Assembly: GCF_900172315.1 (NCBI RefSeq)
Contig: NZ_FWFV01000013.1
Span: 1 to 63,001, forward strand
DNA length: 63,001 nt
Direction of reading: 5' to 3'
DNA from: Palleronia marisminoris
GTDB taxonomy: Bacteria > Pseudomonadota > Alphaproteobacteria > Rhodobacterales > Rhodobacteraceae
Positions 11,461 through 14,371 of the stretch are shown in pieces (position 1 is the stretch's first letter; every line of letters begins with the position of its first letter). A program made the position numbers and the translations under genes. Below the pieces are notes generated by a model. That model was not told where the DNA came from. It made no database searches and saw only the letters and a program-made list of their open reading frames with translations.

Positions 11461-12504
11461 TCAGCGGCCCGCGATGGTGATGGAAAAACTGCGCTGCGCG
11501 CCCGGCGGAGGTGCCGGGAACGGGGCGGCCCGACGGACAAGTTGCACCGCCGCCCGGTCCAGCGCGGCAGAGCCCGAAGAGCGCGCGATGCCGACATTGG
11601 CCAGCCCGCCCGATCCGGCGACCGCGAAGGATATCACGGCACTGCCGGCCGCACGGACCGAGGGGCGCGGCACGCGAGACAGGCGGCTCATGACTTGCCC
11701 GGGATAGTTCGACGCGGCCGCGTTGCCGGCCTGGCTCGCCTGGCGCTGGCCGGTCGCGCCGCTGGCGTTGCCGCCGGTATCCTGCTGCGATCCGGCGCGT
11801 TCGGACCGATCGGAGTTGCCCTGCTGCGTCGCCGTCGGCTGGGCTTGCGCCTGCCGCGTGGGCGTCGGCTGTTGCCGCTGTGGCTCGGGCTGCGGGGGCG
11901 GGTCGGGGCGGCGGTGTCTAGCCTCGAACGCTTCGCTCCGGGTCGGAGGGCGTCGCGACGACACGACCACCCCGGGAGGAAGCTCTTCGCCCGTGATCGT
12001 CTCGGGCCGCGAAGGTTCGACCGGCTCGGGCGGGGCGGCCTGGACCGGCGCGACAGGGTCCGGAGCATCGGCAGTGACGACATCGGGCATCGCCGGAAGC
12101 GTCGGGTCGGCCGTTTGAACCGGGACCGCCTGCACAGGCGTCGGTGGTGTCGGCGCTTCCTGCGGCACGGCCTCGGTCGGCTCGGCGGGCTGGGCCGGCG
12201 TGGGATCGGTCGGTTGGGCATCGCTGGTCGGCTCGGGCGGCGTGGCTTCGACCGGCTCCGTCGGTTCGGCTGCCTCGGTCGGCTCGACCGGGTCCGCCGC
12301 CTGCACGGTCTCGGTCGGCTCGGCCACCTCGGTGCCCGCGGCGAGGTCGGCAAAGCTCGACCCCAGCTGCGAGGGCGCTGCCGAGCCTCCGCCGGCAATC
12401 TCGACCGGGGCGGACCTGACGCCCATCACGAGGCCTGCGGCCAATGCCATGACCGACAGGGCCGTCGCCGTGGTCTTGGCCCGGATCGAGGACGGGATCG
12501 TCAT
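11461..12504 (-). CDS. tonB: TonB-family energy-transducing protein
   Basis: 347 aa. A short cytoplasmic N-terminus and one membrane helix (about residues 12-30) are followed by a very long Pro/Glu/Thr/Ala-rich periplasmic spacer (about 60-230) and a C-terminal TonB/TolA-like domain from about 255 (SNYPGQVMSRLSRVP, then AVISFAVAGSGGLANVGIARSSGS). The spacer is unusually rich in repeated E-P-T units. It is last in an operon with a periplasmic protein, ExbB and two ExbD proteins, and starts by ATGA overlap with the second exbD. No TonB-dependent receptor is in the window. Confidence 0.88.
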   Translation of the reverse strand: MTIPSSIRAKTTATALSVMALAAGLVMGVRSAPVEIAGGGSAAPSQLGSSFADLAAGTEVAEPTETVQAADPVEPTEAAEPTEPVEATPPEPTSDAQPTDPTPAQPAEPTEAVPQEAPTPPTPVQAVPVQTADPTLPAMPDVVTADAPDPVAPVQAAPPEPVEPSRPETITGEELPPGVVVSSRRPPTRSEAFEARHRRPDPPPQPEPQRQQPTPTRQAQAQPTATQQGNSDRSERAGSQQDTGGNASGATGQRQASQAGNAAASNYPGQVMSRLSRVPRPSVRAAGSAVISFAVAGSGGLANVGIARSSGSAALDRAAVQLVRRAAPFPAPPPGAQRSFSITIAGR

Positions 12505-12887
12505 TCGAGGCCCCTCTCGGTCACGATGCGGATGCTTTCGGCGCCGGCGCCGCGCAGTTCGGCGGCAATCCCCACCAGCGTTCTGGCGTCCAATTCGCGA
12601 TCGGGAACGATGCGGATCGCCTCGCGCATTTCCTCGGGCAAGGTCCCGGCGAAGGCGGTGGCTGATTGAACCGGCTCGCCGTGAAATTCCATCGTGCCGT
12701 CGGCCCGAATGATGAGCGTGTCGGGCGGCGCCCGCCCCTCGAGCTCGGCGGTCCGCACGAGCGACAGGTCGCTCGCCAACGGCGGCGCGACCTGTCCGGC
12801 CACCAGGAAGAAGATGAGCATCAGGAACACGACGTTGATGAGCGCGATCGTGGGTTCCCCCCCCGATTTGCGAGGTTTGCGAGCCAT
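12501..12887 (-). CDS. Second ExbD-like protein, transmembrane Asp replaced by Asn
   Basis: 128 aa, ExbD/TolR topology: short basic N-terminus, one membrane helix (about residues 15-35) and a periplasmic domain. Where ExbD/TolR proteins have a proton-carrying Asp near the start of the helix, this one reads ALINVVFLMLIFFLV: the codon is AAC (Asn). The rest of the helix is well conserved. It is coupled to the upstream exbD (TGATG) and to tonB (ATGA). If it pairs with the Asp-bearing ExbD, the dimer would be asymmetric. A non-functional copy is the alternative, but intact coupling and frame argue for use. Confidence 0.85.
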   Translation of the reverse strand: MARKPRKSGGEPTIALINVVFLMLIFFLVAGQVAPPLASDLSLVRTAELEGRAPPDTLIIRADGTMEFHGEPVQSATAFAGTLPEEMREAIRIVPDRELDARTLVGIAAELRGAGAESIRIVTERGLE

Positions 12888-13273
12888 CAGCTTCCCCCGA
12901 GCACCTGGGGCGCCACGTTCGGCACCCCGCGCAGCACGCCCAGAAGGTCGGTCAGCCGTTGCGCCGTCACCCCCTCGGCCAGCGAGACGAGCAGGGTGCG
13001 CGGAGTCTCATCCTCACCGGCATTTGCCAAGGCGTCGCCGAGGCCGTCCAGCGCGTAGCTGTCGCCGTTCAGGCTGACGTCGTCCTCGGCCAGCCGCAGG
13101 AACAGGGGCGCGGCGTCGGACGCTGCCCCGGTGCCGGCGGCCGCCGCGGCCAGCTCGACCTCCGCAAAACGGGTGAAGGTCGAGGTCAGCATGAAGAACA
13201 ACAACAGCAGGAAGATCACGTCGATCAGCGACGTCAGCGACATGGCGCGCCGGCGGCGGCCCCGCCTAAGCAT
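12887..13273 (-). CDS. exbD: ExbD biopolymer transport protein with canonical Asp
   Basis: 128 aa. A strongly basic N-terminus (RRGRRRR) precedes a membrane helix that starts SLIDVIFLLLLFFML, with the conserved Asp at about residue 18; a periplasmic domain follows. It transmits proton-motive force with ExbB to TonB. The ATG at 13273 overlaps the exbB end by 8 bp; the longer open frame upstream is inside exbB and lacks support. It is the first of two tandem exbD genes. Confidence 0.92.
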   Translation of the reverse strand: MLRRGRRRRAMSLTSLIDVIFLLLLFFMLTSTFTRFAEVELAAAAAGTGAASDAAPLFLRLAEDDVSLNGDSYALDGLGDALANAGEDETPRTLLVSLAEGVTAQRLTDLLGVLRGVPNVAPQVLGGS

Positions 13274-13925
13274 GCGCAGGCGTGGCGGTGCCGACGCGGT
13301 CGCTCGACTGCCCGCCCATCGGCGCATGAATGGTGGAGATCGCCCGCTCGGCCAGCACGCGCTCGCCGTCGAGACGGCTTTCGAACATCGACAGGATGGC
13401 CGAAGTCGGCATGGCGACGGCCAGACCCACCGCGGTCGTCAGCAGGGCCACCCAGATGCCGCCCGCAAGGATCGACGGATCGACCTGCGCCCCGGCGTCC
13501 TGCAGGGCCTGGAAGGCCTCGATCATGCCCAGAACGGTGCCGAAGAGGCCAATGAGCGGCGCAAGCTGCGCGACCATGTCGAGGAATCGCAGGCCCCGTT
13601 CGAGCTTGGCGAAGCGCGACTCTGCCTCGGCGGTCAAACGCGCCAATGTCTCGGGGCCCGGAGGGGCCGACACCGCCATGTCCACGACGGGCGCCAGGTA
13701 CGAGCGCGAGCGGTCCAGCGAGCGGCGTGCCTCGGTCCGGTCACCCCGGTCCCATGCGGCGACGGCATCCCGAAGCGCACGGTGGCGGCCGACGCCAGCA
13801 GCGGTGAACTGCCAGAACTTGTAGAGCACCACGGCCAGCGTCACCACGGCGATCACCATCAGCAGCACGACGACCGGGCCGCCGATATCCGCGACCCGCG
13901 AGATCGGATCGAGCAACATGTTCAT
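13266..13925 (-). CDS. exbB: ExbB/MotA/TolQ-family proton channel protein
   Basis: 219 aa with three membrane helices (about residues 15-35, 110-135, 150-175). The second helix carries the conserved APLIGLFGTVLGMI. In the third helix the family usually reads G-x-x-E-A-L-x-x-T-A; here it is GIWVALLTTAVGL, with Val at the expected pore Glu (codon GTG). The channel Thr residues are kept. The start ATG (13925) overlaps the stop of the upstream periplasmic gene (ATGA); a second ATG lies two codons in. Confidence 0.9.
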   Translation of the reverse strand: MNMLLDPISRVADIGGPVVVLLMVIAVVTLAVVLYKFWQFTAAGVGRHRALRDAVAAWDRGDRTEARRSLDRSRSYLAPVVDMAVSAPPGPETLARLTAEAESRFAKLERGLRFLDMVAQLAPLIGLFGTVLGMIEAFQALQDAGAQVDPSILAGGIWVALLTTAVGLAVAMPTSAILSMFESRLDGERVLAERAISTIHAPMGGQSSDRVGTATPAHA

Positions 13926-14371
13926 CCCAGAACCTCGATATCCGTACGGCTGTCGAGGATCAGGCCCGTGGTGCAGGCGGCGTCGCCCAACTCGCCGGCT
14001 TCGCAGGTACTTGCGCCGTTGAAGAGGATGCGGCCGAACCCGTCGCAGGCTTTGCCCGGGATCGTGAACTGGCGAACGCGCGGCCGGCCTTCGGGCAATT
14101 CGCCGAAGTCGAACAACGTCAGGCGCTCGACCTGGCCGTCCGTGTCGAAAAGCACCGTCTCGAACACGGCCTTGGCGATCTCGGCGTCGTGGCCGTTCTC
14201 GATCAGGAAGCTCATGGTGCAGCCGCCGGATTCCGCGGTTGTGGCGGCGTTCAATTCGATGGACAGGCCCGCGGGGGTGGCGGCGTCAACCTCCTCAGCG
14301 TCGTCCTGTGCCTGCGCCTGAGCGCCAAATGCAACCGCGAGCGCGGCCGCCGTGACGGTGAGTTTGAACAT
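13922..14371 (-). CDS. Periplasmic protein leading the tonB-exbBD operon
   Basis: 149 aa with a Sec signal peptide (residues 1-20, ending AQAQAQ) and a mature domain with four Cys residues that could form disulfides (GGCTM, GKACDG, TCEAG, AACTT). No named family is recognised. The ATG is preceded by GGAAGAG. It is the first gene of the operon and overlaps exbB by ATGA, so it is made with the motor; a role as an accessory or ligand-binding partner is only inference. Confidence 0.78.
   Translation of the reverse strand: MFKLTVTAAALAVAFGAQAQAQDDAEEVDAATPAGLSIELNAATTAESGGCTMSFLIENGHDAEIAKAVFETVLFDTDGQVERLTLFDFGELPEGRPRVRQFTIPGKACDGFGRILFNGASTCEAGELGDAACTTGLILDSRTDIEVLG

What the first reader, a model, noticed from the sequence alone, without database searches (positions are those of the whole stretch)
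12501..12887. Second ExbD has Asn in place of the proton-carrying transmembrane Asp
The two tandem exbD genes differ at the key residue: the first reads SLIDVIFLLLLFFML, the second ALINVVFLMLIFFLV (AAC codon, read from the sequence). In ExbD/TolR the Asp is needed for proton-driven rotation inside the ExbB pentamer, and ExbD works as a dimer. A paired Asp/Asn heterodimer would give a motor with one proton site. The Asn gene is intact and translationally coupled on both sides.
Basis: partly seen in the sequence, partly recalled or inferred. Interest (0 to 1): 0.7.

Follow-up and report, generated by a model that had tools for sequence, protein, structure and literature searches.

The report
Ton motor with an Asp/Asn pair
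In this bacterium and many relatives, the proton-driven motor for iron and heme uptake has genes for two paired parts, one of which lacks the residue that normally carries the proton, which could offer a natural test of how such motors work.

Summary
The second exbD (12501-12887, minus strand) has Asn (AAC, 12836-12834) where E. coli ExbD has Asp25. Of 191 distinct tandem ExbD pairs typed, 174 have Asp first and Asn second, 17 have two Asp, and none is reversed or has two Asn. In a less biased set (every tandem pair in the ExbD list of 60 relatives), 27 of 35 are Asp-Asn, 7 Asp-Asp, 1 decayed. In the window's family, tandem ExbD genes and TonB-dependent receptors occur together or are absent together in 35 of 36 genomes. 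The window's genome has no ExbD-family gene besides this pair and a TolR-like one. The five genes H-exbB-exbD-exbD-tonB overlap end to end; relatives often have heme-uptake genes nearby. ExbB keeps both proton-channel threonines. Best reading: an Asp/Asn ExbD heterodimer with one proton site per motor instead of two. The heterodimer and the proton count are inferred, not shown. Published rotary models alternate between two Asp, so this system could test them. The window's TonB also lacks a His that is essential in E. coli. New variant of a known kind.

The parts
12501..12887 (-). ExbD2, the Asn-type ExbD (128 aa); Asn18 codon AAC at 12836-12834, predicted TM helix residues 13-33
   Evidence: PF02472 39.1 bits; aligns with E. 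coli ExbD residue 25; predicted helix plus ExbD periplasmic fold
12887..13273 (-). ExbD1, the Asp-type ExbD; likely start at the ATG at 13273 that overlaps the exbB stop (longest ORF runs to 13327); Asp codon GAC at 13222-13220
   Evidence: (PF02472 51.0 bits); the start is inferred
13266..13925 (-). ExbB (219 aa): keeps the Thr148 and Thr181 equivalents; Glu176 equivalent is Val, residue before it is Trp; Ser34 equivalent is Ala (placed by eye)
   Evidence: PF01618; alignment to solved ExbB/TolQ
11461..12504 (-). TonB-like protein (347 aa) with TonB C-terminal domain; membrane helix lacks the His of the Ser-x3-His motif
   Evidence: PF13103, PF03544; TIGR01352
13922..14371 (-). H: 149-aa protein with a signal-like N-terminus, first of the five overlapping genes, four invariant Cys, predicted all-beta fold, no Pfam match

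Best explanation
The five coupled genes make a TonB motor whose ExbB pentamer holds one Asp-ExbD (ExbD1) and one Asn-ExbD (ExbD2) as an obligate heterodimer. Only ExbD1 can take up and release a proton at the threonine ring. ExbD2's Asn stays neutral and mimics a protonated Asp. Each ExbB5-D1-D2 motor therefore has one proton site, and either takes one proton per 72-degree step (5 per turn instead of 10) or rocks between two states. The unequal periplasmic domains would bind the single TonB strand in one fixed orientation, and TonB pulls open heme or siderophore receptors. Shown: the Asp-Asn pairing and its order, conservation, gene coupling, retained Thr ring, and co-occurrence with receptors. 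Inferred: the heterodimer, one proton site, the stepping and the fixed TonB polarity.
For: 174 Asp-Asn pairs, 17 Asp-Asp, 0 Asn-Asp, 0 Asn-Asn. Asn is one of two invariant positions in the ExbD2 TM region. First and second copies fall mostly on two sides of a tree built without the key column. ExbB Thr148 and Thr181 equivalents are kept in 171 of 171 Asp-Asn cassettes with a found ExbB. Receptors and tandem ExbD go together in 35 of 36 family genomes, 14 of 14 in the genus. Of 80 flanked Asp-Asn loci, 45 have a receptor and 41 an hmuT-like gene in the held flanks, up to 6 kb. In Ruegeria TM1040 a cluster with the same gene list (exbB, exbD1, a second exbD, tonB, a hypothetical protein) is cotranscribed, up about 41- to 201-fold under iron stress, and serves its single receptor, needed for growth on heme (PMC5225302, passages). 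D22N in C. jejuni MotB is called protonation-mimetic (PMC9389320, passages). An ExbD homodimer captures one TonB D-box (PMC10907165, abstract passages).
Against: No complex was modelled or purified; heterodimer formation is untested. E. coli ExbD D25N is described as inactive (PMC11658791, passage), although there both copies carry the change. Five Asp second copies nest in the Asn group (L181, L214, L032, L041, L042), so Asn is not needed by every such motor. I did not see the TM1040 ExbD sequences. 80 of the 240 loci typed came from a scan whose pattern required Asn.
Confidence: 0.6

Rival explanations
1. ExbD2 does not enter the working pore. ExbD1 homodimers are the motor and ExbD2 is a regulator, brake or periplasmic adaptor that titrates ExbD1 or presents TonB.
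For: E. coli D25N is described as inactive, so an Asn subunit could act as a brake. ExbD2 keeps a periplasmic ExbD fold in the model.
Against: In the 22-row ExbD2 alignment all seven invariant residues, Asn included, lie in the TM (its rows were picked among loci with an Asn motif). Asn and only Asn in 174 of 174 Asp-Asn pairs is hard to explain if the residue never meets the pore.
Confidence: 0.17
2. The heterodimer forms, but the motor still has two proton sites: an acidic residue in ExbD2 or elsewhere replaces the missing Asp.
For: ExbD2 has Glu or Asp seven residues before the Asn in 153 of 174 sequences, where ExbD1 mostly has Leu or Ile.
Against: Seven residues is about two helix turns towards the cytoplasm, away from the Thr ring (inference), and 21 of 174 lack it. 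ExbB's own Glu176 equivalent is kept in only 41 of 171.
Confidence: 0.12
3. ExbD1 and ExbD2 form separate homodimeric stators, one proton-driven and one passive (for example a docking or anchoring unit).
For: The ExbD periplasmic domain forms homodimers (PMC10771500, passages), and the Ton and Tol motors described in PMC12905483 (passages) hold two copies of one ExbD or TolR.
Against: An ExbB gene was found beside 171 of 172 Asp-Asn pairs, the genes overlap in the window and the order is invariant.
Confidence: 0.07
4. The Asn copy is a decaying duplicate or a chance mutation.
For: One genus member (G011) has stop codons in the pair and in its receptor gene.
Against: Asp-Asn pairs occur in 34 family codes of the sampled genomes, with both Asn codons in use. 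In G011 the receptor is decayed too.
Confidence: 0.02

Closest known systems
ExbB5-ExbD2-TonB of E. coli and Serratia (Ton motor)
   Same: ExbB and ExbD homology, Thr148/Thr181 ring, ExbD periplasmic fold, TonB C-terminal domain, link to TonB-dependent receptors.
   Different: Two ExbD genes; the second lacks the Asp; the ExbB Glu176 equivalent is mostly lost; ExbB has a Trp before it; the window's TonB lacks the motif His.
Roseobacter heme cluster hmuRSTUV-exbB-exbD1-exbD1a-tonB-hyp (Ruegeria TM1040, PMC5225302)
   Same: Same gene list; a Phaeobacter plasmid (L242) and a Rhodovulum plasmid (L243) have such a cluster with an Asp-Asn pair.
   Different: In the passages I read, the paper calls the second gene a duplicate of exbD1 and says nothing of its TM residue. 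I called no hmu gene beside the window's cassette; its flanks were looked at only as an ORF list.
Asp-Asp tandem ExbD1/ExbD2 of sphingomonads (Sphingobium SYK-6 tonB1 operon, PMC8599685)
   Same: Two ExbD genes with one ExbB and one TonB in an operon.
   Different: Asp25 is stated to be kept in both (passage). Tandems that I take to be of this type (L035-L037) read Asp-Asp and lie outside the Asn group.
MotAB, TolQR and other 5:2 ion motors
   Same: A pentamer around a dimer; an essential Asp on the central helix of MotB, ExbD and TolR (PMC9389320, PMC12905483, passages).
   Different: There the central dimer has two Asp; here one of two genes encodes Asn.
TolQ-like motors with paired vWA proteins that carry a pore helix (PMC12204202, passages)
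   Same: Central partners are encoded mostly as heterologous pairs.
   Different: Described as a conserved pair of Asp, one per monomer; no Asn partner is mentioned in the passages I read.

Membership tests
ExbD/TolR superfamily (PF02472) | Match over the Pfam curated cut-off | tested here: met
   39.1 bits for ExbD2 and 51.0 for ExbD1, cut-off 25.4
ExbD/TolR superfamily (PF02472) | N-terminal TM helix and ExbD-type periplasmic domain | tested here: met
   Model with helix 13-33 and periplasmic match to ExbD 8vgc, 8p9r, 8pek
Proton-carrying ExbD (TIGR02803) or TolR (TIGR02801) | Conserved TM Asp (E. coli ExbD Asp25) | tested here: not met
   Asn in ExbD2; met in ExbD1
Proton-carrying ExbD (TIGR02803) or TolR (TIGR02801) | Equivalog score over the NCBIfam cut-off | tested here: not met
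   ExbD2 12.0 and 13.6 bits, ExbD1 26.7 and 18.8 bits, cut-offs 152.95 and 127.3
ExbB/TolQ (Ton motor pentamer) | MotA_ExbB domain and Thr148/Thr181 ring | tested here: met
   99 bits over 22.9; both Thr kept in the alignments
ExbB/TolQ (Ton motor pentamer) | Glu176 | tested here: not met
   Val in the window; 41 of 171 Asp-Asn cassettes keep Glu; called essential with unclear function in PMC8599685 (passage)
TonB energy transducer | TonB C-terminal domain | tested here: met
   PF13103, PF03544 and TIGR01352 over their cut-offs
TonB energy transducer | Ser-x3-His in the membrane helix | tested here: not met
   Leu at the His position in the window TonB (read by eye against relatives)
5:2 motor with heterodimeric ExbD | One ExbD1 and one ExbD2 in one ExbB pentamer | not testable with these tools
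   Structure prediction here takes single chains only

The most novel reading that the evidence does not exclude
A widespread class of alphaproteobacterial Ton motors runs on an obligate Asp/Asn ExbD heterodimer, with one protonatable site per ExbB pentamer. Alternation between two Asp would then not be required for a 5:2-type motor to do work, and such motors either take 5 protons per turn or rock rather than rotate.
Probability: 0.5. Interest if true: 0.88.

Novelty: new variant of a known kind. Interest (0 to 1): 0.72.

Why it matters
[quoted passage not shown] A natural motor with one Asp would test that directly. In E. coli a single exbD gene supplies both copies, so a D25N mutation removes both sites at once; here the two copies have genes of their own and can be labelled and mutated one by one. 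My literature searches (open-licence papers only, seen as listings and abstract starts) showed no paper that reports the Asn copy; this does not prove that none exists.

Tried and rejected
Chance mutation: rejected by conservation.

Loss of ExbB Glu176 as the partner change of the Asn: rejected as a strict rule. 41 of 171 Asp-Asn cassettes keep Glu, and Asp-Asp cassettes vary too. A Trp just before it marks the class: 170 of 171 Asp-Asn, and 5 of 17 Asp-Asp, which are the 5 that nest in the Asn group.

Natural Asp-Asn fusion protein in L145: rejected. The single open frame is best read as a one-base frameshift near the end of ExbD1 in a draft genome, since another frame, read by eye, gives an ordinary end and a stop.

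TonB His with ExbB Ser34 as proof of coevolution: the two agree in 158 of 165 rows (143 both present, 15 both absent), but the tree-corrected test has no power: 5 independent pairs, in which the second trait differs in about one. The uncorrected Fisher p of 2e-13 counts relatives and should not be used. Dropped before the 165: L027, L143, L212 (misaligned ExbB or wrong downstream ORF). At least two of the 7 mismatches (L095, L164) look like His miscalls at segment edges.

Iron-box TGA-N9-TCA upstream of H: 16 of 93 loci, shuffled mean 6.1, maximum 12 (mononucleotide shuffles only); none in 230 bases upstream in the window. Left open. The likeness to a known iron box is recalled.

Fold of H: best PDB matches are weak (IrmA, TM 0.48-0.50, E about 1e-3). 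No function assigned.

Full report
What is there. The minus strand of 11461-14371 carries five genes in one direction: H (149 aa), exbB, exbD1, exbD2 and tonB. All four junctions overlap. Pfam finds ExbD in both exbD products, MotA_ExbB in ExbB and TonB C-terminal domains in the last. The second ExbD reads ALINVVFLMLIFFLV; its Asn falls on E. coli ExbD residue 25 in a profile alignment. The model of ExbD2 (mean pLDDT 81) has a helix at 13-33 and a periplasmic part that matches solved ExbD domains. The window is one whole contig of a 3.75 Mb genome with three ExbD-family matches: this pair and one on another contig with a TolR-like motif and Asp. Contig lengths shared between (for example 735893, Palleronia abyssalis, a genus mate) suggest a Rhodobacteraceae close to Palleronia; this is inferred.

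Is it more than chance. With three plasmid loci added there were 189 distinct pairs: 172 Asp-Asn, 17 Asp-Asp, none Asn-Asp or Asn-Asn. Two more plasmid loci (L244, L245) made 174 Asp-Asn and 17 Asp-Asp. Asn is in 174 of 174 of the former by definition of the class; the point is that no residue but Asn or Asp occurs in 191. Codons are AAC 114 and AAT 58 (of 172), so the Asn has been kept through synonymous change. Not counted: pairs with an unreadable key residue (L011; L152 and L191, one genome) and L145. Sampling: 77 of the 172 came from a scan whose DNA pattern required Asn; without them the count is 95 Asp-Asn and 17 Asp-Asp. The other loci came from searches with Asn-type sequences or from the Pfam list, and the class and phylum lists were cut off, so these shares are not population shares. 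The least biased set is every tandem pair in the complete Pfam ExbD list (E up to 0.001) for 60 relatives: 35 pairs, 27 Asp-Asn, 7 Asp-Asp, 1 decayed (G011, Asn readable, first copy not), none reversed. One of the 27 (G022) has its second gene split between frames. Against strict universality, 3 family genomes have an extra Asp-Asp pair (L041, L032, L042).

How widely. Asp-Asn pairs occur in 34 family codes of the sampled genomes, three of them outside the class (f203, f211, f218), and in named Rhodobacterales and Hyphomicrobiales. 27 plasmid records carry a relative at E up to 1e-5. I read five plasmid loci from that search and its wider repeat: all five are Asp-Asn, one of them (L244) beside a siderophore receptor and one (L245) beside type VI secretion genes.

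History. On a FastTree with the key column left out, built from 84 of the 189 pairs (representatives) and 22 single ExbD, 62 of 67 Asn copies and 5 Asp second copies fall on one side, first copies and other ExbD on the other; five Asn copies (L028, L031, L154, L160, L179) fall outside. The Asn label needs 6 changes, against a shuffled mean of 55.2. The tree has 127 columns, and 85 of 185 inner branches are unresolved. It fits an old pair of paralogues with perhaps three later returns from Asn to Asp; that polarity is inferred.

Does the cassette work as a Ton motor. In the window's genus 8 of 14 genomes have a receptor plug domain, and these 8 are the ones with a tandem pair. In the family 35 of 36 agree; the exception is G020, with tandem pairs but no plug match. 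In G011 both the pair and the receptor have stop codons. Of the 18 receptor-bearing family genomes, 15 have only Asp-Asn pairs, G011 has the decayed pair, and G018 and G026 add an Asp-Asp pair; each has just one further ExbD-family gene, which I read only in G000. Of 80 loci with flanks, 45 have a receptor and 41 an hmuT-like gene in the held flanks. Phaeobacter and Rhodovulum plasmids show receptor and hmu genes with H, exbB, exbD, exbD, tonB. The same ten-gene list in Ruegeria TM1040 is cotranscribed in two divergent operons and iron-regulated, and its only receptor is needed for growth on heme (PMC5225302, passages). I did not see TM1040's own ExbD sequences.

Partners. An ExbB was found for 171 of 172 Asp-Asn cassettes. 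It keeps both proton-channel Thr in all 171, has Trp before the Glu176 site in 170, and keeps that Glu in 41; the window has Val. PMC8599685 calls Glu176 essential but of unclear function in E. coli. The TonB of the window and close relatives lacks the Ser-x3-His histidine, described as essential (PMC12215075) and its H20A mutant as inactive (PMC11658791). Most genomes without it also lack the ExbB Ser that touches it in E. coli; agreement is 158 of 165, with too few independent events to test. The numbering in ExbB TM1 (Ser34) is by eye.

Mechanism. PMC12905483 (passage) states that in most structures the two Asp point in opposite directions, one at a Thr and one at the cytoplasmic cavity. 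PMC12215075 (passage) states that the rotary models alternate between the two. An Asp/Asn pair would fix this asymmetry by sequence. Asn as a protonation mimic is the reading given for MotB D22N (PMC9389320). An ExbD dimer takes one TonB D-box (PMC10907165), so a heterodimer could also fix TonB's orientation. These steps are inference. Rivals are a regulatory ExbD2, a second site elsewhere, or separate homodimers.

Verdict. Observation confirmed; interpretation plausible, its central assumption untested. ExbD2 belongs to the ExbD/TolR superfamily by homology but does not meet the defining residue of a proton-carrying ExbD. New variant of a known kind. Papers were seen as passages, abstract starts or listings, none whole.

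Noticed in passing
window 11461-12504 (minus): The TonB of the window lacks the membrane-helix His that is essential in E. coli TonB; close relatives share the loss, and their ExbB has lost the Ser that contacts it in E. coli.
   Followed up: partly
window 13922-14371 (minus): H: a protein with four invariant Cys and a predicted all-beta fold (pLDDT 90.8), no Pfam match in 45 members; found in 103 of 172 distinct Asp-Asn loci and 3 of 17 Asp-Asp loci (short flanks make this a lower bound).
   Followed up: partly
window 13266-13925 (minus): ExbB of Asp-Asn cassettes has a Trp before the Glu176 site and has mostly lost that Glu (Val in the window).
   Followed up: partly
L245 6368-10399: A Sagittula plasmid carries an H-like gene, ExbB and an Asp-Asn ExbD pair followed by a large protein, beside type VI secretion genes (tagF, tssM), so the pair may serve something other than TonB receptors.
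   Followed up: no
L032, L041, L042: A second, Asp-Asp tandem cassette in three genomes of the window's family, also with H, nests in the Asn group on the tree; function unknown.
   Followed up: no
L181 and L228: Cassettes whose second ExbD are sisters on the tree, Asp in one and Asn in the other, a natural comparison.
   Followed up: no
G020 (L014, L032): Two tandem ExbD cassettes but no TonB-dependent receptor plug domain found at E up to 0.001.
   Followed up: no
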